Origin: an uncultured Flavobacteriales bacterium
GTDB taxonomy: Bacteria > Bacteroidota > Bacteroidia > Flavobacteriales > Schleiferiaceae
Reading direction: 5' to 3'
Assembly: GCA_950073045.1 (NCBI GenBank)
Contig: CATMQD010000009.1
Span: forward strand, 1-34,546
DNA: 34,546 nucleotides
Shown here: positions 2,402 through 25,280 of the stretch, piece by piece
How positions within the stretch are numbered: position 1 is the stretch's first letter
Layout of the letters: each line of letters starts with the position of its first letter
Notes under the pieces: model-generated
What the model was told of the DNA's origin: nothing
The model's database searches: none
Seen by the model: only the letters and a program-made list of their open reading frames with translations
Position numbers and translations under genes: made by a program

Positions 2402-2456
2402 CAAAAGTGCATAGGGAAGGGAGGCCAATCGTTCGTGATTATGATTTGGGACTTTT
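2402..2456 (-). promoter_or_regulatory. Motif promoter P6 (SDR gene)
   Basis: On the minus strand a CGAAC half-site (2431-2435) lies exactly 21 nt upstream of CACTTTTG (2402-2409), followed by CC. The -7 element sits about 43 bp from the start codon. At the position where promoters P1-P3 carry a second CGAAC there is AAAAGTCC instead, which matches TAAAGTCC of P5. A TTG lies a few bases after the half-site, where the Bacteroidota -33 box would be. Nothing further is seen in 2457-2609 apart from a short GC-rich patch at about 2531-2570. Confidence 0.6.
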
Positions 2457-2609
2457 TAGGCTATGAAAGCTTATTAGAAGAGGGGCGCCTTAAAAAGTGA
2501 TTTTCCCAACTAGCATATCATGGCATTAAGCCTTGCTCGGCTTGGCTCCGCGCAAGCTGCCTGCGAGGTATTTCCAAAGCATTTAGGGACTATTTAAAGG
2601 AATTTGCAC

Positions 2610-3863
2610 CTATTCTATTTCCGACTTAGCGGAAGAAGTGGCTTTGCGCGATATTTTCAGCATGAAAAATAGCGTGATCCCGAACAGCACTACTACAATA
2701 ATGGATAGTACAGGATAGTTCAGCATTATGCCATCTGCATTTTGAATAACAATCCAGCCTGCAGCAGAAGCTGCCAAACCAGCGCAAATTAGTTGAAGTG
2801 CTGAGTCGAAAGTCATAAAAGAACCTCGATCGGTGCTTTTGGGGATTTCTAAGCCAAGCGCTCCTGAGCAAATCATACGTGCGGCCATACCCGCAAAAAG
2901 AAGGGTATTGCATGCCACCACCCAAATAAATCCCGCCTCATGTAGCTGAGAAATTGTTATAACCATTATTGCGGCAAGCCCTGTCCCAAAGGCAAACACC
3001 TTATAATGACTGGTTTTATCTGCAAGTTTTCCTAGCAATGGGCTTAGTACTATTGTGGCAATCCCCGAAGCACCAAAAACCATGGCCAGTTGATCTTCAG
3101 ATATCAATTGGTTTTTTACGTAAAACACCGAGGCAAAGGTCATAAAGAGTACATCGGCAGCAACGATAGTGAGGTTATTGGCGAACACCAACCAGTAAGA
3201 AGAGGTATTGATTATAGCCTTGATTTTTGAAGTCATTTTTTCCTGTTCCCCAAGATGACTGGTTAAAGGCTTTATTATAAAAAGAGAAAGGCCATAAAAC
3301 AGCAAACCTGCTGAAAAGGTTAAAAAATAAGCCGTTTGCCACTGAAAGCGGGAAGCAATAAAAATAGCGGCCGGAAGGCCTAAAACCTGACAAAGTGCGA
3401 AAGCTACATGAAGGGAACCCATAGCCCTTCCTCGCTGTTGCAGAACGAATATTTCACTAACCATTGCATAACAAATGGCCGCAATTAAACCACCAAAAAC
3501 ACCGGCAAAAACCCTGGCGGCTATCAGCATCCAAAAGCCTTGCGCTAATGCTGAAAAGAGAATGCCCACTAAAAATCCCGTATAGATAAACATTAAGAGC
3601 TTTTTGCGCTCAAAACGATCAGCAAAGGCGCTGAAGATTAATGCAGAAGCTCCTGCACTAATGGAGTAGGTTGAAACTACATAGCCAAATTCCTTGGTGC
3701 TTAGATCTAGTGCTGGCATTACCATAGCACTGATGGCTGGCAAAAGCATAAAATCAAGTACTACTGTAAACAGCAGTCCTGCAATACATATTAGCAATAC
3801 TATTTGATAGGAACTGAATTTTTGGCTTTCTGCCGTTGAGCTTTTCATGGGCTTGGGATTCAT
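2610..3863 (-). CDS. MFS transporter
   Basis: This is a 417-residue, strongly hydrophobic protein with about 12 predicted membrane spans, the usual size and layout of the major facilitator superfamily. The loop after TM2 reads ADRFERKKLL, a good match to the MFS signature GxxxDRxGRR(K). The second half has LLGKLADKTSHYK at the equivalent place. The substrate is not deducible; the closest look is to drug/sugar efflux MFS proteins. The start codon overlaps the stop of the upstream DUF4386 gene (ATGA), so the two are translationally coupled and transcribed from P5. Met6 is a possible alternative start. Confidence 0.9.
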   Translation of the reverse strand: MNPKPMKSSTAESQKFSSYQIVLLICIAGLLFTVVLDFMLLPAISAMVMPALDLSTKEFGYVVSTYSISAGASALIFSAFADRFERKKLLMFIYTGFLVGILFSALAQGFWMLIAARVFAGVFGGLIAAICYAMVSEIFVLQQRGRAMGSLHVAFALCQVLGLPAAIFIASRFQWQTAYFLTFSAGLLFYGLSLFIIKPLTSHLGEQEKMTSKIKAIINTSSYWLVFANNLTIVAADVLFMTFASVFYVKNQLISEDQLAMVFGASGIATIVLSPLLGKLADKTSHYKVFAFGTGLAAIMVITISQLHEAGFIWVVACNTLLFAGMAARMICSGALGLEIPKSTDRGSFMTFDSALQLICAGLAASAAGWIVIQNADGIMLNYPVLSIIVVVLFGITLFFMLKISRKATSSAKSEIE

Positions 3864-4552
3864 CGTAAAAAGTTAGCCGGAAAGTGCTTTTCAGGTAGTG
3901 TACTTTTAATAGATGTAAATTCTGACTTGAGCTGAAAAAGAGCCCAGAGGGTAAAGAGGACCTCTCCTAAAAAGGTATAGTCTGATACCAATATCTTTTG
4001 ATCCCAGAGCAGATAAAACACGCTGTCGATCAAATAACCTAAACCAGAAATTATAAGCAAAAGGCCAATGAGCTTTACCCATCTTGATTGGAAAAGAAGA
4101 GCACAACCCACAGGCAGCAGCCATAGGCCCCAAAATAGGGTGGCTATGTAAACTCCTGCTTGGTAAAGATTTAAACGAAGGGCAGTCATTTCGAGATTTA
4201 CAGAGTTTTGTGAAATATGCAAAATGGAGAAACTATTGAGCTCATTGGCCAAGGAAACTATGGCACCGGTCAATAAAAGAAGTGCTGCACTTACAGCCAG
4301 TGTGGATGAGAACTTCCTTAACCAACGGTAGGTGAAAATGGCCAGAAAAAGACTGGAGGCATTCATAAATACCGTTGCCAATATACCGTAACGTAATAGC
4401 TGAGAATTGGCACTAACTTCGGCAACAGTGTTAAGGGCACTATTATAATCGTAGAGTTTTGAAGGAACATAGCCCATTCCGAAGAATCCAAAAACAAAGA
4501 GAAGCAAAAAGCTTATCCCCATTAGTTTAGCATAGTTGAAATATAGTTTCAT
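3860..4552 (-). CDS. DUF4386 family membrane protein
   Basis: This is a 230-residue integral membrane protein with about six spans. The pattern matches DUF4386: an N-terminal span, then a YVPSKLYDYNSA loop, then an LLRYGILATVFMNASSLFLAIFTY-type region continuing into a basic WLRKF segment. Function of the family is unknown. Its stop codon overlaps the start of the MFS gene by four bases, so the two form one operon and perhaps one functional unit. Promoter P5 lies just upstream. Confidence 0.75.
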   Translation of the reverse strand: MKLYFNYAKLMGISFLLLFVFGFFGMGYVPSKLYDYNSALNTVAEVSANSQLLRYGILATVFMNASSLFLAIFTYRWLRKFSSTLAVSAALLLLTGAIVSLANELNSFSILHISQNSVNLEMTALRLNLYQAGVYIATLFWGLWLLPVGCALLFQSRWVKLIGLLLIISGLGYLIDSVFYLLWDQKILVSDYTFLGEVLFTLWALFQLKSEFTSIKSTLPEKHFPANFLR

Positions 4553-4572
4553 CTCTTAATCTTTATTCTCCG

Positions 4573-4627
4573 CAAAACTGCCTCAAGGAGGTGGGTGGAT
4601 CGTCCAGCATTACAATTCAGGACTTTA
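4573..4627 (-). promoter_or_regulatory. Motif promoter P5 (DUF4386-MFS operon)
   Basis: On the minus strand TGGAC (4602-4606) lies exactly 21 nt upstream of CAGTTTTG (4573-4580), which is followed by CG. The half-site is the most divergent of the six, but resembles GGGAC in P2. Further upstream, TAAAGTCC and a TAAT match the same positions of P6. The -7 element sits about 21 bp from the start codon. Taken alone this site would be weak; it is included because of the spacing and the match to P6. Confidence 0.45.
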
Positions 4628-4669
4628 TTTTCGCTTATGAGATCATAGATTTGAGCACAATAAGGGCCT

Positions 4670-6664
4670 TTAATCCTCTCGTGATTTTAGCCATGCCCTT
4701 GGGGTAAGGCCGGTTGAGCGTTTAAAAAAATCGTTGAAAACTGTTTTGGAGTTAAAGCCACTGTCATAAGCTAAGCCCAAAAGTGTTATGTTGCTGTTTT
4801 CAGGATCAAGCGCTTTTCGCTGAAAAGCACTCAAACGCCAACTGTTTATGTATTCATTAAAATTTTGACCAAGATTTTCATTGATTAACCAGGACAGTTT
4901 GTTGGGGTGAATTTGTAGCGATTGTGCCAGATCTCTCAGGGAAAGTGAAGGGTTGAGATAGGTCTCATCTTCATCCATAAGTTGCTTTAATTGCTCAAGC
5001 GTGGCCAGCGTTTCGGGATCTGGACTACTGACTTTTTTATCTTCACCTAAAACTGGAAGAACTCTTTCTTTTATAGTTTGCTTATCCTTTTCACCTTCTG
5101 CTAAATTCATCCTTACCAGCATTTGCTGAAAACGTTCATCATCGCGAATACCGTCCCAAATCCAATAATTCTTGAGGGTAACCATCATTATAGATTTCGC
5201 TTTATATCCTTCTTCCAGCTTCGCAAAGGCTTTATCTTTAAGGCCCATCATGGTATAGAGCAGCGCAGGGTCCATGGGGTCCATAAAATCTTGACTTTCG
5301 ACACTTTGTATAACTTCTTTTTCTTTCCCTAGTAGTACTTTTAAAATGAGATGAGAAAAGTGCGTCCACGGATTATCTTCGCTTAATTCGAAGGCTTTTT
5401 GGGAGGCTAGCTTGGCTTCCTCAAACTTCTTTAGAAATCCAAGTGATATGCTCTTCCAGTGATAAGACTCGCTGTCAGAAGGCTCGAGCTCAATAGCTTT
5501 ATCAAAGGCATCAACAGATGCTTCAAAGCGGGCTGCAAAATAATAGCTGAGGCCAAGTTGCCAATGGCTTTTATAGTGGAGCGGGTCGCTTTCCAATATC
5601 TTTTTAGAAATGTCTATGGCTTTATCTGCATCATTTTCAAGAAAGATGTAATAATAGGTAATGAAGTCATTTTGATTAGGTAAGCCATAACGCACTGCCT
5701 TTTGATAGGACTCTAAAGCCGCGTCCCAATTCCAATCATAATACAAGTGGATAAAGGCGAGGACTTTATGCGCGCGTGGGTCGTATTGATTAAGTCCTAA
5801 AGCCGTGTAGGCATGGGCGCGAGCCTGCTCGTGCGCATCGATAGTGGAAATTATGCCAAAAGCGGAGTGGTGAATTAATGTTTCGCCCAAATAGGCATAG
5901 GCCTCTGCATAGTCAGGCGCCAATTCGATAGCCTTTTTAAAATAATCCAGTGCTTTTAGGGCGCCTTCAAAATCTCTTCTAAAAAAGTAGATTCCCTTTA
6001 AAAGTAATTGGTAAGCCTCGGTGTTTTGGGTGTAATTATTACTGGTAAAATTGACTTCTAACTTAAGTTGCAAACCCGCCAATACACAATTAGCTATATC
6101 ATCCTGAATAGCAAAAATGTCATCCAGCTCACGATCGTATTTTTCTGACCATATCCGATATCCGTTTTCGGTGGTAACCAATTGCACACTAATGCGCACT
6201 TTATTAGCGGCCTTCCTCAGGCTTCCTTCCAAAAGTAGGTTTACCCCAAGTTTATTTCCTATTTCACGCGCATCCAGATCCTTACCCTTAAGGGAAAAGA
6301 CACTTGTACGCGCAATTACTTTCAAACCCTTGATTCGGCTTAAGGCATTGATGATTTCTTCAGTAATTCCATCACTAAAATATTCATCCTCTGGATTGGA
6401 GCTTAGATTTAAAAATGGAAGTACGGCAATGGAGCGTTCCGGAATTTCGGACTTCATTGATTTTTTTGGTTGGTGCAACGGCGCTTTAAGGAGTAAATAT
6501 AGATGTAAAATCCATATTAGACAGAAGAGGCTTAAACCAAAAAAAACATAAGTCAGGAAAGCCCAACTTATGTTTTTGAAAATTTCAAATGCTGCTTGTT
6601 TAGCGCTATTTACTCCATCACTAAGGCATGTTGTGGGCTTCCAAAGGAGCTGGCCTGAAACCAT
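4670..6664 (-). CDS. Membrane-anchored FlgO/TolB-like + TPR + AraC transcriptional regulator
   Basis: The 664-residue protein has: one membrane span at about 32-59; a FlgO/TolB-N-like domain at about 75-205 (SIAVLPFLNLSSNPEDEYF, then FSDGITEEIINALSRI); TPR repeats at about 215-500 (for example YFKKAIELAPDYAEAYAYLG); and a C-terminal AraC-type HTH over the last ~110 residues, with ITLLGLAYDSGFNSKTVFN and the closing FKRSTGLTPRAWL. It is therefore a one-component regulator held at the inner membrane with the DNA-binding part in the cytoplasm. The signal sensed is unknown. The ATG start lies 55 bp inside the end of the DUF4249 gene, and no later start would keep the membrane span, so it is translated with the TonB-DUF4249 operon under P2. 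It is the best candidate to bind the CGAAC sites found at six nearby promoters. Confidence 0.85.
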   Translation of the reverse strand: MVSGQLLWKPTTCLSDGVNSAKQAAFEIFKNISWAFLTYVFFGLSLFCLIWILHLYLLLKAPLHQPKKSMKSEIPERSIAVLPFLNLSSNPEDEYFSDGITEEIINALSRIKGLKVIARTSVFSLKGKDLDAREIGNKLGVNLLLEGSLRKAANKVRISVQLVTTENGYRIWSEKYDRELDDIFAIQDDIANCVLAGLQLKLEVNFTSNNYTQNTEAYQLLLKGIYFFRRDFEGALKALDYFKKAIELAPDYAEAYAYLGETLIHHSAFGIISTIDAHEQARAHAYTALGLNQYDPRAHKVLAFIHLYYDWNWDAALESYQKAVRYGLPNQNDFITYYYIFLENDADKAIDISKKILESDPLHYKSHWQLGLSYYFAARFEASVDAFDKAIELEPSDSESYHWKSISLGFLKKFEEAKLASQKAFELSEDNPWTHFSHLILKVLLGKEKEVIQSVESQDFMDPMDPALLYTMMGLKDKAFAKLEEGYKAKSIMMVTLKNYWIWDGIRDDERFQQMLVRMNLAEGEKDKQTIKERVLPVLGEDKKVSSPDPETLATLEQLKQLMDEDETYLNPSLSLRDLAQSLQIHPNKLSWLINENLGQNFNEYINSWRLSAFQRKALDPENSNITLLGLAYDSGFNSKTVFNDFFKRSTGLTPRAWLKSRED

Positions 6665-7452
6665 CCTAGACCACCTTGAATATTAGAAGGCACATTGGCG
6701 GGTGTCCGGCCAAAAAGACCACCCTGCATGGGTGTCTCCGATAGGGCGCTTAAATACGCATAAGTTTCTTCGCTAATGCGGATAAACTGCACGCTTAGCA
6801 CATCACCCGTTTGCAGCTTTTCTTCCTCATCCAATTCATCTGCCCAGAAGGCAATCCTAAGCTCCAGCTCATCATTTTGATCATATAAACGATCTTCAAA
6901 AACTATTATATCAGAGGCGGTGCCCATCCTTTTTATTCCGTTCACATAAACCTCCGCCTGGTAATAGCTGTCTTCCTTCTGGTATTTGTCGATGGTAGCC
7001 ATTAGATGTTGGCCAGCTTCAAGGTAAGGGTGGCTAAGGTCTGCATTTATCACACTTACATTTTTTGCGAAAACAGTATCGCGCATAAGTGCTTGGGCTG
7101 AAATGCTTCCCTCATCATATTGCACATCCAGCGTATAGGTTTCACCAACTTCGCCTACAAAACCAGCTGGAGGAAGGTACATTTCTGGATTCTCTGCTAG
7201 TGTGAAAAGCGTAAGATTTCCTTTACTATCTCTCACACTAACTTGAGCGTCATTTACAAATTCAGGACTCTCAGAAGCCAAGTAGCCCTTGGTATAAGCC
7301 AGTTTCACAAAACTTCCCCCACTTTGGTTTGATATGATACCTTCTACGGCAATTTTGCTTTCGGGTTCCTTGAGCTTTAAATCTACCACCTTGGTGCAGG
7401 AACTAAGAATAGCAATTATGAAAGTCATTAAAAGTATGGATGGATTTTTCAT
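6610..7452 (-). CDS. DUF4249 family outer-membrane lipoprotein
   Basis: This 280-residue protein has a lipoprotein signal peptide (MKNPSILLMTFIIAILSSC, lipobox LSSC). The mature part begins KVVDLKL and ESKIAVEGIISN, the typical start of DUF4249, and ends with a SNIQGGLGWFQ segment also typical of that family. DUF4249 proteins are regularly encoded directly after TonB-dependent receptors and are thought to be surface partners of the transporter. That is the arrangement here: only 4 bp separate it from the receptor gene. The 3' end overlaps the regulator gene by 55 bp. Confidence 0.85.
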   Translation of the reverse strand: MKNPSILLMTFIIAILSSCTKVVDLKLKEPESKIAVEGIISNQSGGSFVKLAYTKGYLASESPEFVNDAQVSVRDSKGNLTLFTLAENPEMYLPPAGFVGEVGETYTLDVQYDEGSISAQALMRDTVFAKNVSVINADLSHPYLEAGQHLMATIDKYQKEDSYYQAEVYVNGIKRMGTASDIIVFEDRLYDQNDELELRIAFWADELDEEEKLQTGDVLSVQFIRISEETYAYLSALSETPMQGGLFGRTPANVPSNIQGGLGWFQASSFGSPQHALVME

Positions 7453-7456
7453 GGAT

Positions 7457-9760
7457 TTAAAATTTAATATTTAGGGTAAAGGCGGGTACGATGCTTCCTA
7501 TCAATGCGGTTTGTACCGCTTCGGTTTGTTTGGGATTGTCAGCATTTTGGCGCACTTGAATGCTGAAAGGGTTCTGACGAGCATATAGGTTGTAGATGGA
7601 GAAGTTATAGCTGTAGTCCCACTTGCGGCCTGGCTTCTTCTTGCCATCTAAGGTTAAGGACAAGTCCAGTCGGTGAGAGTCGGGAAGTCGGTAACCATTT
7701 TTTTCATCGTAAACCGGAACCACCACCCCGTTAAATTCATAAGAAGAAGTAGGCAGGCTTATTGGTGCTCCAGTAGAATAGGTCCAGGCTGCGGCCAATT
7801 GTAAGCGGGGCTTTAGCTGGTATGATGAAACAATATTGATAGCATGCGGGCGATCTTGATAGGGTAGATAAGATTTGCCATTATTTATTCCTGCTATAGT
7901 ACGCTCCGTGCGTGAAAGGGTATAGCTGATCCAACCGGTCAGTTTTCCGTCCGTTTTCTTTAGCATCAATTCCAATCCGTAAGCCTGGCCAAACCCCGAA
8001 AGGACTTCGTTTTCCAAATGTTTATTGAGAATGAGATTTGCATTGTCTTTGAAGTCTATTTGATTTTGCATGTACTTGTAGTAAACTTCAGCAGAAGCTT
8101 CATAGCTATTGTTATGAAAGTTTTGGAAGTAGCCTAGGGCGATTTGATCCGCAATTTGAGGCTTAATATCTAGCGGTGGTCCGGTGGTAGAGTTAGAAGC
8201 CAGTTGCAAATATTGCATCATTCGGTTGTATGACATTTTAATGGAACTGGAAGTGCCCAACATATGACGCATGCTTAGCCTTGGTTCAAAGCCCCCTTGC
8301 GTACCGTGAAATTCATTAGCATTATAATCTGTACTCGAATATGGTTCATCGGCGCCATTTTCATACTGGTTTACTCTGCCACCAATATTCTGAAACATTG
8401 AGAATCGAATACCCGCGTCAATTGTAAATTCATCGTTCACTTTGAGGGTAGAGCTCAGATAGGCCGCTGTTTCAAGGGCTCGCTGTGTTTCTAATTCAAA
8501 AGAGACATCAGATTCTGGGCCGCTAATGTTGATGGCTCCAGGGTTTATGTTGTAATAGGTAGAAGCAGCCCCCATCTTAAAGCTTAATTTTGAGCTCGAC
8601 AAATAGGTGAAATCAGCTTTTAAGGTTTCATTATTGATTCGGGCTTTCCATTCAAGCTGAGAATTTCCTGTAGAATTCACTCCTAAAGTGTAGTTGTAGT
8701 CGCTGTAGAGCGCAGAAACATCAGCAAATAACTTTTTCGAAAAGGCGTGTTTCCAATTGGCAGTGGCGGTGCGGTTGCCCCAGTTCCAACTCAGTTGCTC
8801 CTTGTTTTTTAAAACGTCATCTCCGTAATATCCCGAAAAGGTGAGAACATCTTTTTCGCCCAGCCTGAAATTCAATCTTCCATTGAGATCGTAGAAATAC
8901 ATCACACTGTTTTTCAAATCTTCCCTCGAACTCATGCGGGTAAACACATCTGCGTAAGTTCTGCGTCCTGCCAACAAAAACGAGCTTTGCCCTTTTTTAA
9001 TTGGGCCTTCCAAACTCAATCTGCTGGCTATAAGTCCTAAGCCAGCATTGCCAGTAAATTCTTCAGTATTGCCATTTTTCTGTCTGATGTCTAAAAGTGA
9101 AGCCGACCTTCCACCGTATTGAGCTGGAACCCCACCTTTATAAAGCTCTACCTCCTTTATCACATCGGCATTGAAAACCGAAAAGAAGCCCATTAAATGG
9201 CTGGGGCTGTAAACTGTTGCACCATCCAGTAAAACCAGATTTTGGTCAGCCGAGCCCCCACGCACAAAATAACCCGTGGTTCCTTCGCCACCGGATTGTA
9301 CCCCTGGCAGGGCCTGAATCGCTTTCAGTACATCAACTTCCCCCATAAAAGCGGGAATTTCTTTAATGGTTTTGAGGCTCAGTACTTCACTGCTCATCTT
9401 AAAATCCTCTACATGGGCTGCTTCAAGCTGGTCAGTTACCATAACTTCGGCAAGCTGGGTAGCAGAAGGGGTGAGGGTTATATTTTGCTTTTGCTTGCCA
9501 GCCACCCTAATTTCAATAGTTTTGGTTTCATAGCCAATAAAGCTAATCTGCAATTGGTGCTTACCTGTTGGTAAACTGATGGTATAAAACCCTTGGGCGT
9601 TTGTTGTTGCTCCTATCTGGAGCGCCGGAGCATATACCGTAGCTCCAATAAGGGTTTCGGAAGTGATTGCATCAGCGATATATCCACTGAGGGTGGCCTT
9701 TTCTTCGGCTTTGGCTATTAAGACCAATAGGGTCAAGATGACGGTTAGTACTTTTTTCAT
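7457..9760 (-). CDS. TonB-dependent receptor 1 with carboxypeptidase-regulatory-like N-terminal domain
   Basis: This is an outer-membrane active transporter. The start was placed at the ATG at 9760 (767 residues) because it opens a proper signal peptide (MKKVLTVILTLLVLIAKA) and follows promoter P2; the open frame extends 34 codons further but that part overlaps the promoter. Domains in order: signal peptide; CarboxypepD_reg-like beta-sandwich (about 25-100, TLSGYIADAITSETLIGA); plug domain (IPAFMGEVDVLKAIQALPGV, then YFVRGGSADQNLVLLDGA); and a beta-barrel to the C-terminus, ending in the aromatic residue FTLNIKF. The substrate is unknown. Receptors paired with DUF4249 are a distinct group from SusC/SusD pairs; no SusD is present. 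It heads the TonB1-DUF4249-AraC operon. Confidence 0.93.
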   Translation of the reverse strand: MKKVLTVILTLLVLIAKAEEKATLSGYIADAITSETLIGATVYAPALQIGATTNAQGFYTISLPTGKHQLQISFIGYETKTIEIRVAGKQKQNITLTPSATQLAEVMVTDQLEAAHVEDFKMSSEVLSLKTIKEIPAFMGEVDVLKAIQALPGVQSGGEGTTGYFVRGGSADQNLVLLDGATVYSPSHLMGFFSVFNADVIKEVELYKGGVPAQYGGRSASLLDIRQKNGNTEEFTGNAGLGLIASRLSLEGPIKKGQSSFLLAGRRTYADVFTRMSSREDLKNSVMYFYDLNGRLNFRLGEKDVLTFSGYYGDDVLKNKEQLSWNWGNRTATANWKHAFSKKLFADVSALYSDYNYTLGVNSTGNSQLEWKARINNETLKADFTYLSSSKLSFKMGAASTYYNINPGAINISGPESDVSFELETQRALETAAYLSSTLKVNDEFTIDAGIRFSMFQNIGGRVNQYENGADEPYSSTDYNANEFHGTQGGFEPRLSMRHMLGTSSSIKMSYNRMMQYLQLASNSTTGPPLDIKPQIADQIALGYFQNFHNNSYEASAEVYYKYMQNQIDFKDNANLILNKHLENEVLSGFGQAYGLELMLKKTDGKLTGWISYTLSRTERTIAGINNGKSYLPYQDRPHAINIVSSYQLKPRLQLAAAWTYSTGAPISLPTSSYEFNGVVVPVYDEKNGYRLPDSHRLDLSLTLDGKKKPGRKWDYSYNFSIYNLYARQNPFSIQVRQNADNPKQTEAVQTALIGSIVPAFTLNIKF

Positions 9761-9819
9761 TGGATTGGTTTTGCTTGTTTTTAGGATTGTGAGTTTCGCA
9801 ATCTTCACATTTACCGGGG

Positions 9820-9874
9820 CAAAGCTATTGGTAGGCCGAGCCCTGCAAGTCCCGTATCTCACTACTTAGGTTCG
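9820..9874 (-). promoter_or_regulatory. Motif promoter P2 (TonB1-DUF4249-AraC operon)
   Basis: On the minus strand TAGCTTTG (9820-9827) is a perfect TAnnTTTG -7 element, with a TTG (9846-9848) 18 nt upstream as -33 box. GGGAC (9849-9853) lies exactly 21 nt upstream of the -7 element, and CGAAC (9870-9874) lies 21 bp further up. The same two-site layout is seen in P1 and P3. If the AraC protein of this operon binds here, the operon is autoregulated. Confidence 0.7.
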
Positions 9875-9904
9875 GGATTATAATTGAAGACCAAAATGCG
9901 TTGG

Positions 9905-10897
9905 CTACTGTGCTTTAAGGAAAGGCTGGATTTGAACTATTCGTTTCTTAAAGTTTATTCTAACCAAGCCTGTGGCCATTAAATCGTAGCCTATAAATCC
10001 ATCTACATACATATCAAAGTCACTCAAGTGCTTAAGGTCAACCGCTACCGTGGTAACTTTTTTAAGGGTCACTCCCAAATCGATTTCGCCCAGTTCCCTG
10101 ACTTCGATACCTGATGTGGAGCCGCCAGTGCTAAGTAGTTCCTGCTTGCTAAGAATGTTGGTTTGGATCTTATCCTTAAGTAAAGCGTATTTATCGAATA
10201 GCAGTATTTCAGAACCCGTATCGAAGGCTATGCGGTAGGAGCGATTGTTTATTTTGGCTTCCAATTCTATCAAATGACCCCTGTATCGAAAAGGTATTGT
10301 TATGAGGTCCTTATTCTCAGTTGCTACTTTGGCTTGCACTCTTAAACCATTTTTATCTGTTTTAAAAACGCGAAGAACCTTTCTCTGCAAATCAATTTCC
10401 ACTTCTTCCCCCTGTAGGAGAGAAACACCCAATAAGCCCAGTATCTTGACCTTTCGCTTCTCTTCAATATGACTTAGGTCCATCACATCTGCCAGCTGTC
10501 TTTTAAAACCAAGATTTCCGAGTTTTAAGTTGCGCACGGAAATGACCCTAGCAGGGTGCAGTTGGCCGTTTACCCCGCTTACCTGTCGGTTTGGATCGAC
10601 CCTACCATTTTTAAAGTATTGATCGTTTAAAACTAGACCTGGTGCTCCAGTATCAAAAATTAGGTAGCCATGTTCACCATTCACCTCAGCTTTCACTAAA
10701 ATCAACTTGCCTGCTTTGTAAAGAGGAATAGAGTGAAAAGTGCTAGAATTATTTTCGGTGTTTGCCTCTGGCCAGGATACGGCACCTCGGTAAGCAGAAC
10801 AGCTGCATAAAAGAATAAGGGTACTGAGGATTAAAGGGAATTTTAAACGGATTTTTAAGCTGGTGCTGATATTTGGTTTCTTTGCCATTGGTCTCAT
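9905..10897 (-). CDS. Two-lobed retropepsin-like aspartyl protease, lipoprotein
   Basis: This 330-residue protein carries two copies of the aspartyl protease catalytic motif: FDTGAPGLVLND in the first half and FDTGSEILLFDKYALL in the second. Each is preceded by a hydrophobic strand (GYLIFDTG, YRIAFDTG). Two DTG lobes in one chain suggest a monomeric enzyme rather than the dimer formed by single-lobe retropepsins. An N-terminal hydrophobic stretch ends in LILLCSC, a lipobox, so it is probably anchored in the periplasm or at the outer membrane. Met4 is an alternative start. It is transcribed from P1 and lies just upstream of the TonB1 operon, but the two have separate promoters. The substrate is unknown. 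Confidence 0.82.
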   Translation of the reverse strand: MRPMAKKPNISTSLKIRLKFPLILSTLILLCSCSAYRGAVSWPEANTENNSSTFHSIPLYKAGKLILVKAEVNGEHGYLIFDTGAPGLVLNDQYFKNGRVDPNRQVSGVNGQLHPARVISVRNLKLGNLGFKRQLADVMDLSHIEEKRKVKILGLLGVSLLQGEEVEIDLQRKVLRVFKTDKNGLRVQAKVATENKDLITIPFRYRGHLIELEAKINNRSYRIAFDTGSEILLFDKYALLKDKIQTNILSKQELLSTGGSTSGIEVRELGEIDLGVTLKKVTTVAVDLKHLSDFDMYVDGFIGYDLMATGLVRINFKKRIVQIQPFLKAQ

Positions 10898-10925
10898 GGT
10901 AAAACTCTTTTGTGATTTGATGAGG

Positions 10926-10980
10926 CAAAAGTGACTGGAAACCAGGGTAAAGAAGTTCGGATTTCAAGGACTCAGGTTCG
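10926..10980 (-). promoter_or_regulatory. Motif promoter P1 (aspartyl protease)
   Basis: On the minus strand CACTTTTG (10926-10933) followed by CC is preceded at exactly 21 nt by CGAAC (10955-10959), and 21 bp further up by a second CGAAC (10976-10980). The sequence between the half-sites, CTGAGTCCTTGAAATC, resembles that of P2 and P3 (TTGA-AT core). The -7 element lies about 28 bp from the start codon. The remaining DNA up to 11085 shows nothing recognisable. Confidence 0.7.
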
Positions 10981-11085
10981 AGATTATATTTCTGAACATT
11001 TTTATATCGGATTAAAAAGATGCAGGGCAAAAAAAATCCGGCCCCAGCCGAAAGGTGAAAAGCTGATGAAAAACCTTTGAACAGG

Positions 11086-11342
11086 TTAAAAGAATGCCAA
11101 GTCTTTGTAAGGCGACTTAATCCTTTTCGCCTTTTTAGCTAAGCTTACTGCAAAACCCACTGAGGTCAAAACCATCGGGATAGCGATGATGGACTCAACT
11201 GGGTTCAAATGCTCCGAAATTAAAGGGAAGAAGAAGTATTCAAGCTTTTATCAAAAAGCCAGGGTTCAATGAAGAGAGAGATGATTGTACCAACAAATAA
11301 AGCATCTCTAAGGATGATTTTGCTTGTCTTATTCATCAACAT
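11086..11342 (-). pseudogene. Frameshifted small gene for a two-TM membrane protein
   Basis: From ATG 11342 (or the in-frame ATG 11336) the minus strand encodes NKTSKIILRDALFVGT, then IISLFIEPWLFDK, and then loses frame. One frame away, the text continues KLEYFFFPLISEHLNPVE, IIAIPMVLTSVGFAV and a basic tail ending SPYKDLAFF and a stop at 11086-11088. The two halves join smoothly if one A is added in the AAAAG run at the DKxLEY junction, giving about 82 residues with two hydrophobic segments and a lysine-rich end. Either the gene is dead by a one-base deletion or the base call is wrong. The family was not recognised. No ORF finder that requires one frame would show it. Confidence 0.55.
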
Positions 11343-11626: not shown

Positions 11627-12193
11627 CTAAAATCTATACCCGATTCGCAAGTGCATGTTTAATTCAAATCCACTTTCGTCTTCTGAGTATCCGGCGCGCT
11701 CAGCAAAGGTGTAGCTATATCCTGCGCCAATGCCTGCTTCATAATTAAAATGGTCTCCGATATTCCTTCTAATTCCCCAGGTAGGTATAATGGCGAAGTC
11801 GCTTACCACCGGAGCATCGTCCGTATTGAACAGCGCCAACTCTGGATGATAACTCGTTTTTAAAGCAATAAAATTGCCGGAATTTCCATCAATCCTCTTT
11901 GAATTTTGGAGGCGTTTTTGGAGGTTGTAATAAAACCGAGGCTCAATAACAATAACCGGAGTAAGAATAAAGGGAGAGTCATAATTATCATAATAGGTGG
12001 TTTCCCAAATACCAAAGTCAAAACCAAGCTCTGTTCTTAGTGCAATGCTATTTGATAGTTTAACTTCATTATAGGCCCAAAGCCCTAGAACCCCGGCTTG
12101 CACTCCAAATGTTGATTTTTCTACACTGGCGTTTTGAGACTTGGCGATTAATGATAGTCCGCACAAAGTCAAGATGAATGCTACTTTTTTCAT
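11627..12193 (-). CDS. Outer-membrane beta-barrel protein
   Basis: This is a 188-residue protein with a signal peptide (MKKVAFILTLCGLSLIAKSQ) and alternating amphipathic strands: FGVQAGVLGLWAYNEVKL, then IALRTELGFDFG, then PTWGIRRNIGDHFNYEAGIG, ending in MHLRIGYRF. The terminal Phe fits recognition by the BAM machinery. No enzymatic motif is present; a structural or porin-like role is possible but not shown. It stands alone, under motif promoter P4, with a fragment of a similar barrel directly downstream. Confidence 0.75.
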   Translation of the reverse strand: MKKVAFILTLCGLSLIAKSQNASVEKSTFGVQAGVLGLWAYNEVKLSNSIALRTELGFDFGIWETTYYDNYDSPFILTPVIVIEPRFYYNLQKRLQNSKRIDGNSGNFIALKTSYHPELALFNTDDAPVVSDFAIIPTWGIRRNIGDHFNYEAGIGAGYSYTFAERAGYSEDESGFELNMHLRIGYRF

Positions 12194-12297: not shown

Positions 12298-12352
12298 CAA
12301 AAGTGAAGTGAATAGAATGGTGAGTCGTACGGAATTGTAATTCCGTTCTTAT
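12298..12352 (-). promoter_or_regulatory. Motif promoter P4 with an 18-bp palindrome (beta-barrel gene)
   Basis: On the minus strand CACTTTTG (12298-12305) is preceded at exactly 21 nt by CGTAC (12327-12331). The half-site overlaps a perfect palindrome, ACGGAATTGTAATTCCGT (12329-12346; 8-bp arms, 2-bp centre), which the other five promoters lack. The -7 element lies about 105 bp upstream of the start codon, so the transcript would have a longer leader than the others. Part of the gene-free gap 12194-12554. Confidence 0.55.
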
Positions 12353-12538: not shown

Positions 12539-12545
12539 TCACCGC

Positions 12546-15101: not shown

Positions 15102-15336
15102 TGGTAGCAGATTACTCAAAAGCTGGCAAATTGGATAACAACAGAACTTTTAGCCCATTAATATTGGCTAGGTCATTTGTAATATTCTCAGTACTACCAT
15201 CACAGAAATATTCTTTCCTCCAATGGAAACTCCTATTTAAAAAGGGCTGTAGGGCCAGGGTGGTGGCTGGCATGGCGTCAGTTTAAAACTGCAAGATAGC
15301 CTAAGCTTTTTATAATGGAATAGGGGCTAGAACTAT

Positions 15337-16108: not shown

Positions 16109-17452
16109 TCAGCTTTCTGTCTTTAAGTTTTTATCTGAACTACCATTATCGTAATGCCCTTCAACTGCAAGGCTTTGTCCATTTTCAACAATGAATTTTA
16201 AGCGAAACGAATTATTTTTTTTTAGCATAAACTCCTTGTCGTTGAGTGGTATCATTTTGTATTGAATTTCTGTGCCTTCTCTCTGATAATACAAATTGTT
16301 GTCCTTCAAACTAATCATCCTCGGTCCATAATTCCCGATGTATGATTTAAGAATTGGAGTATCTACCAATACGGGTTCCATTATGGCCTTAAGCCCTTCC
16401 AAATGCCAGGTATAAAACCTTTGGTTGATTTCATTTTCTTTGTTTGCCTGTATTAAAGTTTCTAAGGCCTTAGTTTGTGCAAGTTCTAAGGCCTGGCTTG
16501 CTGGGATTTCTATATGTGGAGTTACACCGGTGCCTTCCCAGTTTGTTTTTGTGATTGGGTTTATGGCCCGACCGATGGGAATAGTTATCGAAAATTTATC
16601 GGTAGCACTAACTGGTCCGCTAGGATGAGCCCCACCCCCAGTTGTTTCACCAATTATTGTGGCTCGTTTTAAGTGTTTCAAATTGTAGCAAAACTCTTCT
16701 GCTGCAGAAAAGGTTCTGTTACTTGTTAATAGATATACTGGAGTATTTGGAACTCGCCTTCCTTGCACATATGGAAGGGTCCAGGTTTGCGTGGTCTCAT
16801 TGGAGGGTCTCCAATAAAAATTATTTAGATGTACAGGATTGCTGTTAAATAAGTAGCTGGTGATAAGTTGAATCATAGCCGGGCTGCCACCGCCATTCAT
16901 CCGTAAATCGATAATTATAGCATCAGTGTTGCTTAAAAAATTCATGACAGAAACGGCTGTTAGTCCAGCATATTCTACATCTTCAAAGCTTCTTAAATCT
17001 AAGTATCCAATGTTACCGCCCAATATTTTCAACTCTTTAAAACCAAAATTATCGCGTTTAATTTCATTGATGTATTGATTAAGATAACGCAAACTATCTT
17101 CAGCGCTCACAACTTCATTTCGGGCCTTAATATCTTCAGGGGCATAATCTACACGAATGTGCTTATCGTGGCTTATCGCTAAAAGATCAGCGGTAAGCTG
17201 GTACGCAAAATCATTGGGGTTATTAATAGAATTATACTTGCCTTTCTTAAGGTTTTCCCTGATTAAATTAGACATCTCCTTGGCCACTTCTGGGAAAATA
17301 TAGAACCCCAATAGCTTGTTGCTAATTGAATCTACAGTAATCGATTTCTCCTGATAGGTGAGTTCATCATATCCAGCCTGCGCATTGGCTTCATTGGTAA
17401 ATAGTATTGAAAAAAAAGTAATCACCAATAAAATTGAATTCGTTCGTTTCAT
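16109..17452 (-). CDS. S41 family (C-terminal-processing/IRBP-like) serine protease, secreted
   Basis: The start was set at ATG 17452 (447 residues): it opens a signal peptide (MKRTNSILLVITFFSILF, cleavage after ANA) and has a good ribosome-binding site, AGAGGA, 5 bases upstream. An N-terminal helical domain (SISNKLLGFYIFPEVAKEM) is that of IRBP-like S41 proteins. The catalytic core follows: GYLDLRSF, IIDLRMNGGGSP, the nucleophile serine in SNRTFSAAEEF, and IGETTGGGAHP. No PDZ domain is evident, as in other IRBP-like members. A C-terminal beta-rich domain (YIGNYGPRMISLKDNNLYY) ends the protein. It acts in the periplasm or outside the cell; the substrate is unknown. Confidence 0.9.
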   Translation of the reverse strand: MKRTNSILLVITFFSILFTNEANAQAGYDELTYQEKSITVDSISNKLLGFYIFPEVAKEMSNLIRENLKKGKYNSINNPNDFAYQLTADLLAISHDKHIRVDYAPEDIKARNEVVSAEDSLRYLNQYINEIKRDNFGFKELKILGGNIGYLDLRSFEDVEYAGLTAVSVMNFLSNTDAIIIDLRMNGGGSPAMIQLITSYLFNSNPVHLNNFYWRPSNETTQTWTLPYVQGRRVPNTPVYLLTSNRTFSAAEEFCYNLKHLKRATIIGETTGGGAHPSGPVSATDKFSITIPIGRAINPITKTNWEGTGVTPHIEIPASQALELAQTKALETLIQANKENEINQRFYTWHLEGLKAIMEPVLVDTPILKSYIGNYGPRMISLKDNNLYYQREGTEIQYKMIPLNDKEFMLKKNNSFRLKFIVENGQSLAVEGHYDNGSSDKNLKTES

Positions 17453-17566
17453 AATTTCCTCTTTAACTCTAAGCACCCGGTTAGCCACTGTTATTTAGTT
17501 TTAATTCTGTCTTTATAGCGTGCTTTACTACTTTATTCAACAGCTTTTAGCGCATCACTACCGCTT

Positions 17567-18331
17567 TTAAAATTTATAAACCCCATTGATATCACCAGCC
17601 AGTTGTAAAATCCAACTCCCTTCTTTTAAGTTTAGGTTGGCCCGATAAGCATCGAAAGCGGTTCCAACCAGAGTATCGGGAAGGTTTGCCGCCATAATAG
17701 ACAATACACTAGTGCCATGGCTGCCCCAGCCCGAAAACACGTTAGTGTCATTAGTTAGATAGTTAAAAGTTCCTAAAAGTCTTGGAGAGTTGCGCAGACT
17801 ATCAAAAGCAGGGCTTTGCAGGAAGCCTTCATATCCGGCATCAATTACAGCAATCCTAATACCCGTTCCGGTATGGCCCTTTTCATGCAGCAAATGACCA
17901 TTCAGCATTTCAATCTGCCCTCGGGCAAATCCATAATCCAAGGTGTCGCCAGAATTAACTCCACACTAGAAACTTTGATGTCTCTTAGGAAATTCAATAC
18001 GCTCCACAAAAGGTAAGGAGGCAATTAATTGGGCTTGTGGATGACGGACATATACATAGTTCAGCCATTTGGACTGCGCCAAGGGCGAAGCGCCTAAATC
18101 TTTCAGGGCCTGCAGGTACTCTTTGGCAATGGGTAAATGGCTCCTTTTAATGGGGATATTTTGGAGAGCCCGGCGGTTAAGAGCAGCGCTTGACAGGAAT
18201 CCTTCTGGGGAATCGAGTAAACCCAGACTGGAGCCTTTATCTTTTAGGTAAACTCTAAATTCAGTTTGGCCTTGAACTTTTAGGCTTAGGCAAAAAAGAA
18301 GTCCTGTTAAAACGTAGCTATATTTAAACAT
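17567..18331 (-). pseudogene. Dead subtilisin-like (S8) protease with T9SS-type tail
   Basis: ATG 18331 opens a signal peptide (MFKYSYVLTGLLFCLSLKVQ) and the usual N-terminal region of Bacteroidota S8 proteases (RRALQNIPIKRSHLPI, SKWLNYVYVRHPQ, LPFVERIEFPK). An in-frame TAG at 17966-17968 then breaks the gene; the same frame resumes DYGFARGQIEMLNGHLLHEK and contains the catalytic Asp (RIAVIDAGYEGF) and His (SHGTSVLSIMAAN). After VGTAFDA the text jumps to AYRANLNLKEGSWILQLAG and ends INGVYKF, a T9SS-tail-like end. The whole catalytic Ser region is missing, so an internal deletion is inferred as well as the nonsense mutation. The product cannot be an active protease. Confidence 0.8.
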
Positions 18332-19863: not shown

Positions 19864-19889
19864 TTTCTTAATTTCTTTTTTTGATGTTA

Positions 19890-20465: not shown

Positions 20466-20574
20466 CCCTTATTGTAGGTATTTAACATTATTTATTTCAA
20501 GACTAAAGGTCATTCGCTTTCCAATTTAAAGATGCATAGTGCAGTGCGCAGTTTGCTTCTATGCTAAGCTTAAA

Positions 20575-21480: not shown

Positions 21481-21528
21481 TTTATATTAAATTTTAAACT
21501 TTCATTGAATTGGGACTGCTCGCATCTA

Positions 21529-21705: not shown

Positions 21706-21731
21706 CTTTATTGGTTTAACCTTAGGTCGAT

Positions 21732-22589: not shown

Positions 22590-22653
22590 ATTATTTATTC
22601 TTTACAGTTTTTAGGCAGGAATTGAAAGCCAATGTTTTTTGTGCATTTTAATT

Positions 22654-23040
22654 TTATTCTAAATTCCTCCAGGTCCATGCCGCCCAAAGAATATATAATG
22701 TTGCTGATATTTCTACTATACTGAAAAAGAGGTAGTGCAGGGTAAAGTCACCATCTAGTAATGTTCCAGCCTGAATTAGCGTGAATACAATTCCGCCAAT
22801 AATATTAAACCAACGATTTAAAGAATATTTTAAAACTCTGGATAGGACAATCATCACCATTGCAAACTCCATGATGATGGCAAAAGTTAGTAGGAAGCTT
22901 TGCGTCAGCTCAATGCCTCCAACTTTACCTTTTAGAAATTGGTTGAGGTCAGGAGCGTGAAAGAGCGTAAAAACATCACAAAAAATGTAATTTACTGTTA
23001 CAAATATCCATAGAGTGGAGAGTAATACTTTTTTATCCAT
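22654..23040 (-). CDS. DUF6326 family membrane protein
   Basis: This 128-residue protein has four predicted membrane spans. The beginning, STLWIFVTVNYIFCDVFTLF, and the following loop match the DUF6326 family (roughly 130-140 residues, function unknown). It lies 64 bp upstream of the alpha/beta hydrolase gene on the same strand and may head that operon. Confidence 0.75.
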   Translation of the reverse strand: MDKKVLLSTLWIFVTVNYIFCDVFTLFHAPDLNQFLKGKVGGIELTQSFLLTFAIIMEFAMVMIVLSRVLKYSLNRWFNIIGGIVFTLIQAGTLLDGDFTLHYLFFSIVEISATLYILWAAWTWRNLE

Positions 23041-23131
23041 GTTTATTATTTTGATTATTTAATGACGCACAAGCGGTTGGGCTATGCGCAGCAGATATGA
23101 TGAGTTTTCAGTTGTAATAATCTTTGATATA

Positions 23132-23166
23132 TCGAAACTTTTTTCCACTGGAAGCTGCCTCGAAAC
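23132..23166. promoter_or_regulatory. Possible operator: direct TCGAAAC repeats upstream of the DUF6326 gene
   Basis: TCGAAAC occurs at 23132-23138 and 23160-23166 (28-bp period), each next to an ATAT run (GATATATCGAAAC and TCGAAACGATAT). They lie about 90-125 bp upstream of the DUF6326 start codon in a 234-bp gap with no gene. No CGAAC-N21 motif is present here. Purely a pattern; no protein is proposed. Confidence 0.25.
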
Positions 23167-23274
23167 GATATGGAAATATTTAATTTTTTGATCATAGGTA
23201 ATGAGTATTCCCTGTTGGTTTTGAGGCTATTTTAATAGAGGTTTCGTGATAACTTAATTAAGGCGATAGATAGG

Positions 23275-24213
23275 TTAATGAGAAAGGGTGATGATGACAT
23301 TTCCCCGTTTATGACCTCGTTCCACATAATTGTGTGCATCGGCCATTTTTTCTAAGGGAAACACTTTATCGATAACAGGTTTGAATCTGCCACTTTCTGC
23401 TAAGTCCTTGAGTTTCAAAAATGCACTTTTCGGAGTTTTAGGAACCCCATTGTCGATGGACAGATATTTGCCACCTTCAGTAAGTGCCCCTTTGCTCTTT
23501 TCCTTTAAGGATGATGTCTTACTGTTTCCTACCGCGTCTATCACGTATTTATAAGCGCTCAATTCGTCTTCTGCATTTGCAAGGGTGTAATCAATTACCT
23601 TATCTGAGCCCAAGGAGCGAACCAGCTCAATATTTCTTGTACTGCACACACTGGTAACCTGAGCTCCGGCATTTTTGGCGAGCTGAACAGCTGCGGTTCC
23701 AATACTTCCTGATGCCCCATAAATGAGCACTTCATCTCCCTTTCGAATATCAGTCTGCTTGAGCAGGTGAGTCGCCAACAAACCTCCATAGGGAATGGCA
23801 GCGGCTTCTTCAAAGCTTAGGTTTTTAGGCTTCAGTGCGATGTTCCAATCCTGAGGCAAACAGATAAACTCTGCGTATGAACCAAAGCGATGTTTCAAGG
23901 ATGAAATGGAACCGTAGGCAAACACTTCATCTCCATTATTAAACGAACTAACATTAGCACCTTTATTTACCACCACTCCCGATGACACCATTCCTAAAAT
24001 CGGGTTTCTTGGTTTTCCGAAACCAAAGATGACTTGAAGTATAAATTTGGGTATTGGGGGCTCGTTTAATCTCCGCATGAGCACATCACTTGCGGTAACT
24101 GAAGTAGCTTTTATCTTTATCAGCACTTCATTTGCTTTAGGTGATGGCTTTTCAAAATTATCCATCACTAGGTTTTCAGAACCTCCGTATTTTAAGCATC
24201 TAATCGCTTTCAT
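23275..24213 (-). CDS. NAD(P)-dependent medium-chain dehydrogenase/quinone oxidoreductase
   Basis: This 312-residue protein is a medium-chain dehydrogenase: GroES-like N-terminal half (KATSVTASDVLMRRLNEPPI, then GMVSSGVVVNKG) and a Rossmann half with VLIYGASGSIGTAAVQLAKN. The PYGGLLATHLL segment and the absence of the structural-zinc cysteine cluster and zinc-ligand His place it with the zinc-free quinone-reductase/zeta-crystallin-like branch. It probably reduces quinones or enones with NADPH. It starts 4 bp after the epoxide-hydrolase-like gene, so the two form an operon under P3. Confidence 0.9.
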   Translation of the reverse strand: MKAIRCLKYGGSENLVMDNFEKPSPKANEVLIKIKATSVTASDVLMRRLNEPPIPKFILQVIFGFGKPRNPILGMVSSGVVVNKGANVSSFNNGDEVFAYGSISSLKHRFGSYAEFICLPQDWNIALKPKNLSFEEAAAIPYGGLLATHLLKQTDIRKGDEVLIYGASGSIGTAAVQLAKNAGAQVTSVCSTRNIELVRSLGSDKVIDYTLANAEDELSAYKYVIDAVGNSKTSSLKEKSKGALTEGGKYLSIDNGVPKTPKSAFLKLKDLAESGRFKPVIDKVFPLEKMADAHNYVERGHKRGNVIITLSH

Positions 24214-24217
24214 AATT

Positions 24218-25198
24218 CTATTTGTTTTTCAGCCAGTTAAGAATGGCTTGATTGGTTTCTTCCGGCTTTTCTTGCTGAATCCAATGACCACAGTTGATAC
24301 TTACTTCTTTTACATTAGGCACATAGGCTGGTAAGTCTTCAAACTTTGGAATCATATCCTGGTCACCGTAAATCATCAGGGCAGGATGCTTTATAATGGG
24401 GTTTGCTTCAGCCAGTAATTGCCAGTTTCTATCGAGGTTTCTGTACCAATTAATACTGCTGTTAAATCCTGATGATTTGAAGGCAGCAGTGAAAACGGCC
24501 AATTCTTCTTCACTCATAAGTGGTTCGCCCTGTGGGGCCTTGGCTTTCGCCAGATTTATCATGGCCATGCCTGGTTCGGGTGGCATTTGGGGTAAATTTT
24601 TTCGAAAAAGATTGTTTAGAAACTGATCGGTATTTTCATCGAGGATAGCATCGGCAACACCCGGTTTTTTATTAAAATGCACAAAGTAGTAGTCGCTCCC
24701 TAAGAAGGCTTCCATCCACTCGATCCAAGGAATATCTCCCCGAACTTGGTACGGAACGGCCAAGGCAACAAGTTGCTTTACACGGTGTGGATGCAATTGG
24801 GCCAGCCACCAAGTCACCATGGCACCCCAATCATGACCGATAAACGTTGCGCTTTTATAATTATAATAATCCAATAGGGCGATGAGGTCATTGCTAAGCT
24901 GTTCAATATCATAAGCGATAAGTTCAGAGGGTCGCGAGGAATTACCATAGCCCCTTTGGTTAGGTACTATTACATGGTAGCCGGCTTCAACTAATGCAGG
25001 AATTTGGTGGCGCCAGGTAAAAGCATGCTCGGGCCAACCGTGCAGCAGCACTATTGGTTTGCCTGCATTTTGTTTTCCTGCTTCAAAAACCTCTAGTTTT
25101 ATTCCATTGACGGAAATAATAGTCGATTCTGGGAACTCGCTTAGTACTTTGGGTTTTAGGACTGTTGAGGCCAAGCCTTTAGCGGTGACTGCCTTCAT
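24218..25198 (-). CDS. Epoxide-hydrolase-like alpha/beta hydrolase
   Basis: This 326-residue protein shows the hallmarks of soluble epoxide hydrolases: HGWPEHAFTWRHQIPAL (oxyanion HGxP), VPNQRGYGNSSRP, and the nucleophile Asp in FIGHDWGAMVTWW. The acid (IYGDQDMIP) and His (NCGHWIQQEKP) come in order near the end. The cap domain lies between (about 150-245); the two cap tyrosines that activate the epoxide were not assigned. Dehalogenases share the same core, so the substrate class is likely but not certain. No signal peptide. It is the first gene of the operon with the quinone oxidoreductase, under promoter P3. Confidence 0.88.
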   Translation of the reverse strand: MKAVTAKGLASTVLKPKVLSEFPESTIISVNGIKLEVFEAGKQNAGKPIVLLHGWPEHAFTWRHQIPALVEAGYHVIVPNQRGYGNSSRPSELIAYDIEQLSNDLIALLDYYNYKSATFIGHDWGAMVTWWLAQLHPHRVKQLVALAVPYQVRGDIPWIEWMEAFLGSDYYFVHFNKKPGVADAILDENTDQFLNNLFRKNLPQMPPEPGMAMINLAKAKAPQGEPLMSEEELAVFTAAFKSSGFNSSINWYRNLDRNWQLLAEANPIIKHPALMIYGDQDMIPKFEDLPAYVPNVKEVSINCGHWIQQEKPEETNQAILNWLKNK

Positions 25199-25226
25199 GA
25201 AAATTGTTTCTTTATGATTACTTCGG

Positions 25227-25280
25227 CAAAGGTGCAGCTTTGTTACTGCGCCAAGGTTCGCAATCTCAAGTGTGCGTTCG
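25227..25280 (-). promoter_or_regulatory. Motif promoter P3 (epoxide hydrolase-ADH operon)
   Basis: On the minus strand CACCTTTG (25227-25234), followed by CC, is preceded at exactly 21 nt by CGAAC (25256-25260) and 20 bp further up by a second CGAAC (25276-25280). The stretch between the half-sites contains TTGAGATT, like TGAGAT of P2 and TTGAAAT of P1. A TTG lies just after the proximal half-site. The -7 element is about 28 bp from the start codon. This site lies some 14 kb from P1, so the motif is not just a local duplication. Confidence 0.7.

What the first reader, a model, noticed from the sequence alone, without database searches (positions are those of the whole stretch)
2402..25280. 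Six promoters share a CGAAC-N21-CACTTTTGCC architecture: a candidate local regulon
Minus-strand promoters upstream of the SDR (2402-2456), DUF4386-MFS (4573-4627), TonB1 operon (9820-9874), aspartyl protease (10926-10980), beta-barrel (12298-12352) and epoxide hydrolase-ADH operon (25227-25280) all have a CGAAC-like half-site (CGAAC in four positions of proximal site or close variants GGGAC, CGTAC, TGGAC) exactly 21 nt upstream of a CACTTTTG-like -7 element, mostly followed by CC. Three (P1-P3) carry a second CGAAC 20-21 bp further upstream. Identical spacing at six unrelated genes over 23 kb is hard to explain by chance. The half-sites sit just upstream of where the -33 box should be, the usual place for an activator that replaces a weak -33. 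Direct repeats of ~21 bp are known for AraC-family sites (for example araI1-I2) and for LytTR sites. I know of no described Bacteroidota regulon with this operator.
Basis: partly seen in the sequence, partly recalled or inferred. Interest (0 to 1): 0.8.

Follow-up and report, generated by a model that had tools for sequence, protein, structure and literature searches.

The report
Phylum-wide AraC-type operator and regulon

Summary
All six promoters carry a G(R)AC half-site exactly 21 nt upstream of the -7 element; it is neither chance nor a general promoter form. The real half-site is longer (about TRATYCCGRACGATTG) and has two architectures. Class A is a head-to-head inverted repeat (SDR, DUF4386, beta-barrel promoters). 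Class B is a 20-21 bp direct repeat (TonB1, aspartyl protease, epoxide hydrolase promoters). Matrices trained on the window's own family found 84 sites with a -7 at exactly 21 nt in 58 of 79 loci encoding a homologue of the window's TolB-like/TPR/AraC protein (4670-6457); reversed sequence gave 1. Class A tracks one regulator clade, class B another. The operator base R co-varies best, of 574 protein columns, with residue 576 in the second recognition helix of the AraC domain. So there are two interleaved regulons, not one: the window's regulator most likely activates class A promoters, and a clade-2 paralogue, deleted from this cluster but present on contig C221, serves class B. Binding, activation and the signal are inferred. 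No description of this operator was found in the open-access library. Closest known: Bacteroides HTCS 21-bp direct-repeat motifs.

The parts
4670..6457 (-). Regulator, clade 1: TolB-like/TPR/AraC protein, 595 aa (start re-assigned from 6664 to ATG at 6457)
   Evidence: Pfam HTH_18 and TPR; orthologues begin at the same Met; model mean pLDDT 89 with poorly ordered linker before the HTH
2426..2454 (-). P1 operator, class A (inverted repeat), SDR promoter
   Evidence: PWM 32.8 bits with -7 at 21 nt; conserved in G018
2402..2409 (-). P1 -7 element CACTTTTG
1492..2358 (-). Target gene: NmrA-like SDR
   Evidence: Pfam
4597..4625 (-). P2 operator, class A, DUF4386-MFS promoter
   Evidence: 36.3 bits; conserved in G018, G025, G027
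4573..4580 (-). P2 -7 element CAGTTTTG
2610..4552 (-). Target operon: DUF4386 gene and MFS transporter
   Evidence: Pfam
9847..9882 (-). P3 operator, class B (21-bp direct repeat), TonB1-DUF4249-regulator operon promoter
   Evidence: 41.1 bits; conserved in G018, G025, G027
9820..9827 (-). P3 -7 element TAGCTTTG (inside the listed 7457-9862 ORF; true TonB1 start probably ATG near 9760)
6610..9760 (-). TonB-dependent receptor and DUF4249 genes, upstream partners of the regulator gene in one operon
   Evidence: Pfam; order conserved in G018; in G025 three extra ORFs lie between DUF4249 and the regulator
10953..10988 (-). P4 operator, class B, aspartyl protease promoter
   Evidence: 38.8 bits; operator identical in G018
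10926..10933 (-). P4 -7 element CACTTTTG
9905..10897 (-). Target gene: aspartyl protease
   Evidence: Pfam
12322..12350 (-). P5 operator, class A, beta-barrel promoter
   Evidence: 28.5 bits; conserved in G018 and G025
12298..12305 (-). P5 -7 element CACTTTTG
11627..12193 (-).
25253..25288 (-). P6 operator, class B variant with 20-bp spacing, epoxide hydrolase-ADH promoter
   Evidence: same 20-bp form upstream of hydrolase or ADH genes in G025, G005, G031
25227..25234 (-). P6 -7 element CACCTTTG
23275..25198 (-). Target operon: alpha/beta hydrolase (epoxide hydrolase-like) and zinc-type ADH
   Evidence: Pfam

Best explanation
The sites are operators of a family of AraC-type regulators whose sensor is a TolB-like domain plus a TPR superhelix. 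Each monomer reads an approximately 11-16 bp half-site (TRATYCCGRAC, followed by GATTG in class A). The promoter-proximal half-site is always in the same orientation, with GRAC at about -37 to -34, in the place of a -33 box, and contacts sigma/RNA polymerase to activate a weak -7 element (CA..TTTG). The partner half-site is either a direct repeat 21 bp upstream (class B) or abuts head-to-head (class A); a flexible linker between TPR and HTH could allow both. In this window the clade-1 regulator (4670-6457) most likely drives the class A promoters (SDR; DUF4386-MFS; beta-barrel). The class B promoters (TonB1-DUF4249-regulator operon; aspartyl protease; epoxide hydrolase-ADH) most likely answer to a clade-2 paralogue, encoded inside this cluster in relatives and on contig C221 here, which would therefore also control expression of the clade-1 regulator. 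Shown in silico: the sites, their conservation, fixed spacing, co-segregation with regulator clade, and base-residue covariation. Inferred: binding, activation rather than repression, the cascade, and an unknown signal.
For: Conserved at orthologous promoters in G018, G025 and G027, and upstream of the ADH next to the paralogous regulator in most other regulator-bearing genomes of the family. Test on 79 loci (one, L094, overlapping the training set): 96 class A sites of 15 bits or more in 62 loci, 89 intergenic; 84 sites with a -7 at 21 nt against 1 in reversed sequence, 42 of them directly 3' of the regulator gene. A..TTTG lies at one spacing (72 sites; no other spacing above 5). Class B has the same spacing (16 of 20). 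Phylum sample: operator near the full-length regulator in 12 of 14 further genomes fetched, 6 with the canonical -7 and 5 with a GATCATTG variant at the same place; the three pattern hits in genomes without a full-length regulator have no -7 there. Three more class A sites with correct -7, not used in training, at the second clade-1 locus of the same genome (L068). Class co-segregates with clade, Fisher p about 2e-9 ignoring relatedness. Residue 576 in the second recognition helix is rank 1 of 574 columns for coupling to the GRAC base (D/E with G, T with A) in 23 non-redundant pairs. No other transcription-factor family recurs in the neighbourhoods.
Against: No experiment. About 17 of 79 regulator loci show no class A site at 15 bits; G202 and G248 of the phylum sample show none convincing. 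G026 has a strong site but no detectable regulator (assembly about 92% complete). The clade-class link is partly phylogenetic, and four clade-2 rows are scored A. Some other operator positions couple about as strongly to scattered columns outside the HTH, so covariation alone is not proof. In several class B promoters the -7 is a poor match (TTCATTTG).
Confidence: 0.75

Rival explanations
1. One regulator, the window's AraC protein, binds all six promoters, using both direct and inverted half-site pairs.
For: The half-site and its placement relative to -7 are the same in both classes; a poorly ordered linker before the HTH would allow both arrangements; it is the only such regulator encoded in the window.
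Against: Class B never occurs with clade-1 regulators (0 of 59 assigned rows). In G018 and G025 a clade-2 gene lies inside the cluster, and in the window exactly that segment is missing. GAAC-type sites go with T576 regulators while this one has D576.
Confidence: 0.2
2. The regulators repress rather than activate: the operator covers the -33 region and blocks RNA polymerase.
For: The operator overlaps the -33 region.
Confidence: 0.15
3. A LytTR-type or other regulator (TetR, HxlR, sigma factor) binds the sites and the AraC gene is only a neighbour.
For: GAAC cores with 21-bp spacing resemble some LytTR sites (own knowledge); inverted repeats suit many regulator families.
Against: No other regulator family recurs near the sites; base-residue covariation points to the AraC recognition helix; architecture follows the AraC protein's phylogeny.
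Confidence: 0.04
4. Chance resemblance or a general Bacteroidota promoter form.
Against: Full operators: 12 against 0 controls in 88 genomes, 84 against 1 in test loci, 0 in 72.6 kb of control DNA from the same genome.
Confidence: 0.01

Closest known systems
Bacteroides hybrid two-component systems (HTCS) with AraC-type output (PMC3878776)
   Same: AraC-type DNA-binding domain; predicted motifs are direct repeats with an average 21 bp between half-sites; regulators control adjacent genes including TonB/SusC-type receptors
   Different: HTCS have a periplasmic sensor, histidine kinase and receiver; here a soluble TolB-like/TPR protein. No inverted-repeat class was reported there. Targets here are hydrolases, oxidoreductases and outer-membrane proteins, not polysaccharide loci
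E. coli AraC at araI1-I2 and other class II AraC/XylS activators
   Same: Two half-sites 21 bp apart, the proximal one overlapping the -35 (-33) region (own knowledge); HTH alignable to AraC (2k9s)
   Different: No arabinose-binding domain; TPR sensor; inverted-repeat variant; Bacteroidota -7 TAnnTTTG promoter
CadC
   Same: The predicted TolB-like/TPR part has the CadC periplasmic domain among its Foldseek hits (3ly8, 3ly9)
   Different: CadC is membrane-bound with an OmpR-type winged helix; here no membrane segment and an AraC-type HTH. Foldseek TM-scores are low and TPR-dominated

Membership tests
AraC/XylS-family regulator and operator | AraC-type double HTH in the regulator | tested here: met
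   PF12833 E 1.6e-12; AraC and Lin2118 HTH structures aligned
AraC/XylS-family regulator and operator | Direct repeat of about 21 bp | tested here: met
   Class B sites, 21 bp (20 in one variant); class A is inverted, so met for three of the six window promoters only
AraC/XylS-family regulator and operator | Proximal half-site overlaps the -33/-35 region at fixed distance (class II activation) | tested here: met
   A..TTTG at one fixed spacing; numbering from PMC6847099
AraC/XylS-family regulator and operator | Recognition-helix residues specify the half-site bases | tested here: inconclusive
   Residue 576 rank 1 of 574; statistical only; equivalence to MarA Arg96 is from own knowledge
AraC/XylS-family regulator and operator | Protein binds the site and activates transcription | not testable with these tools
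   needs bench work
Bacteroides HTCS | Histidine kinase and receiver domains in the same protein | tested here: not met
   Pfam finds only TPR and AraC HTH
Bacteroides HTCS | Periplasmic sensor and membrane segment | tested here: not met
   Orthologues start at MKSEIPERS/MISEIPERS with no N-terminal hydrophobic segment
LytTR regulon | LytTR regulator associated with the sites | tested here: not met
   No LytTR among window proteins scanned or among the 25 commonest families of 148 neighbour proteins
General Bacteroidota sigma-ABfr promoter form | Present at most genes genome-wide | tested here: not met

The most novel reading that the evidence does not exclude
A phylum-wide, so far undescribed regulator-operator family: TolB-like/TPR/AraC proteins of two old clades use the same half-site in two geometries (inverted or direct) at one invariant distance from the Bacteroidota -7 element; one recognition-helix residue (576) sets the readable base (D/E for G, T for A); and the clades can be wired into one gene cluster so that one paralogue controls the gene of the other.
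Probability: 0.6. Interest if true: 0.75.

Novelty: new variant of a known kind. Interest (0 to 1): 0.62.

Why it matters
Few operators are known for Bacteroidota outside gut Bacteroides sugar regulons. This gives a recognisable operator, its regulator family, a predicted base-specificity residue and a promoter geometry that can be searched in any Bacteroidota genome. It assigns regulators to many uncharacterised genes (NmrA-like SDR, serine beta-lactamase/esterase family, zinc ADH, DUF4386, outer-membrane proteins), and makes testable how an activator replaces the -33 element of the unusual Bacteroidota sigma factor.

Tried and rejected
The one-mismatch hit on contig C47 lies inside an ORF and scores nothing with the operator matrices: rejected. 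A strict class A consensus over 247 phylum genomes was insensitive: 7 genomes hit, three without the full-length regulator and without a -7. The idea that trailing CC after the -7 matters was dropped. A membrane anchor for the regulator was dropped: it depended on a wrong start codon. Autoregulation by a site directly upstream of the regulator gene: 0 cases in the test loci. A third half-site about 20-21 bp further upstream in many class A operators is visible in the consensus, but only 6 of 84 pass a 4-bit cut: left open. A first -7 test on class B used an offset wrong by one base (one search counts class A only); corrected. Ten literature searches found no description of this operator.
Full report
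Observation. The only two exact matches in the 3.47 Mb genome are both in the window.

True motif. Comparing orthologous promoters in G018, G025 and G027 shows conserved sequence well beyond CGAAC, in two architectures. Class A (SDR, DUF4386, beta-barrel) is AAGTCCtGAATYRTAATcwCGGACGATT, two abutting half-sites TRATYMVGRAC head to head. Class B (TonB1, aspartyl protease, epoxide hydrolase) is TATAATYCCGAACCT-N6-TRARATNCSGAACTT, a direct repeat with 21 bp (20 in the epoxide hydrolase type) between half-sites. In both, the promoter-proximal half-site has the same orientation and distance to the -7. Scanned over 88 genomes of the family, class B gave 7 hits in 5 genomes, all beside homologues of the window's AraC protein, and class A 5 hits in 4 genomes; the reversed patterns gave none.

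Regulator. The AraC protein of 4670-6664 probably starts at 6457 (orthologues begin MISEIPERSIAVLPF), so it has no membrane segment. It has a TolB-like N-terminal domain, a TPR superhelix, a poorly ordered linker and an AraC HTH (Foldseek hits are TPR proteins and the CadC sensor domain). It is the third gene of the TonB1-DUF4249 operon.

Independent test. Position matrices built only from the window's family were run on 79 loci from other Bacteroidota and neighbouring phyla that encode a homologue. One locus, L094, is the same assembly as G015, whose close relative supplied a training site; the G027 copy was left out. Class A: 59 matches of 20 bits or more against 0 in reversed sequence; 96 sites of 15 bits or more in 62 loci, 89 intergenic. 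The distance from GRAC to A..TTTG takes essentially one value (72 sites; no other spacing exceeds 5). Requiring the -7 at that distance leaves 84 sites in 58 loci against 1 in the control. 42 lie directly 3' of the regulator gene, at the promoter of the next gene, and none directly upstream of a regulator gene. Class B, with a corrected offset, has the same spacing in 16 of 20. In a phylum sample of 247 genomes chosen without regard to the regulator, loci around full-length regulators in 14 further genomes were fetched. Twelve show operators of 18 bits or more: six with a canonical -7 at the right place, five with GATCATTG there, one with a poor -7. The three pattern hits in genomes without the full-length protein lack the -7. 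In the window's own genome a second locus (contig C151) has four class A sites with correct -7, three not used in training, while 72.6 kb of that genome away from regulators has none.

Who binds. A tree of 106 regulators splits into two halves with 99% SH-aLRT support: one has 59 rows assigned class A and none class B; the other has 10 B, 4 A and 14 unassigned (Fisher p about 2e-9 ignoring relatedness). The base R in GRAC and its mirror base in the other arm co-vary most, of 574 protein columns, with residue 576 of the regulator (23 sequences below 60% identity). D or E goes with G, T with A. Residue 576 lies in the recognition helix of the second HTH (model helix 562-573 in 586-residue numbering). 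By my own knowledge it is equivalent to MarA Arg96, a base-contacting residue. With all 57 pairs it ranks first for the left arm and second for the right arm, behind residue 581 of the same region. No other regulator family recurs nearby.

Consequence for the window. The window's regulator is clade 1 and so most likely serves P1, P2 and P5. P3, P4 and P6 are clade-2-type operators. In G018 and G025 a clade-2 regulator gene is inside the cluster between the beta-barrel and protease genes. In the window about 8.8 kb including that gene is missing relative to G018: window 11225-11233 joins positions 17351 and 8539 of L061. A clade-2 paralogue on contig C221 has its own class B site before its ADH. 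Since P3 drives the operon containing the clade-1 gene, a cascade from clade 2 to clade 1 is implied. This is inference.

Mechanism. With F. johnsoniae numbering (-7 element T-12, A-11 to G-5; PMC6847099) the GRAC core lies at about -37 to -34, in the place of the -33 element. A TTG near -33 is absent in most sites (present right after the half-site in 23 of 84) and the -7 usually has C at -12 (59 of 84). Repression is not excluded. The signal is unknown. The 69 target genes scanned are most often serine beta-lactamase/esterase family (10), NmrA-like SDR (7), zinc ADH (4), outer-membrane beta-barrels (4) and TonB receptors (3).

Known systems. Bacteroides HTCS proteins have AraC-type output and predicted direct-repeat motifs averaging 21 bp (PMC3878776). 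The direct-repeat class works like these, but the regulator lacks kinase, receiver and periplasmic sensor and is not an HTCS. I found no report of the inverted class, of this regulator family's operator, or of the fixed -7 spacing in the library available. Most subscription journals are not covered.

Limits. Nothing was measured. Seventeen of the 79 loci lack a class A site at 15 bits; G026 has a site without a found regulator. Covariation and clade-class association are partly confounded by relatedness, though ranking against all other columns of the same protein controls for much of it.

Noticed in passing
1190-1420 and 25592-25793: A roughly 200-nt direct repeat (73% identical) that occurs only twice in the genome and brackets the whole 24-kb gene cluster; it may mark the ends of a mobile or duplicated segment.
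   Followed up: partly
17567-18331: Two short ORFs match parts of a single ORF of about 525 aa in G018 and G025 that is intact there; in the window an internal piece is missing, so the gene looks like a broken remnant.
   Followed up: partly
15160-15301: A 140-nt stretch upstream of the TonB2 gene is 76% identical to the 5' end and upstream region of the clade-2 regulator gene of G018, a possible relic or shared promoter segment.
   Followed up: no
11225-11233: Junction of an approximately 8.8 kb segment present in G018 and absent here that holds the clade-2 regulator, an ADH and a DUF4386 gene.
   Followed up: yes
L182:728 (G026 contig C27): Strong class A operator with correct -7 in a genome where no regulator of the family was found; either assembly loss or an orphan site.
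   Followed up: partly
L195-L197, L199, L200: In one family (f24) the -7 after the operator reads GATCATTG at the same spacing, suggesting a lineage-specific -7 variant.
   Followed up: no
L122: A clade-1 regulator with its class A operator on a contig binned as Thalassobius (Pseudomonadota); a binning error or a transfer.
   Followed up: no
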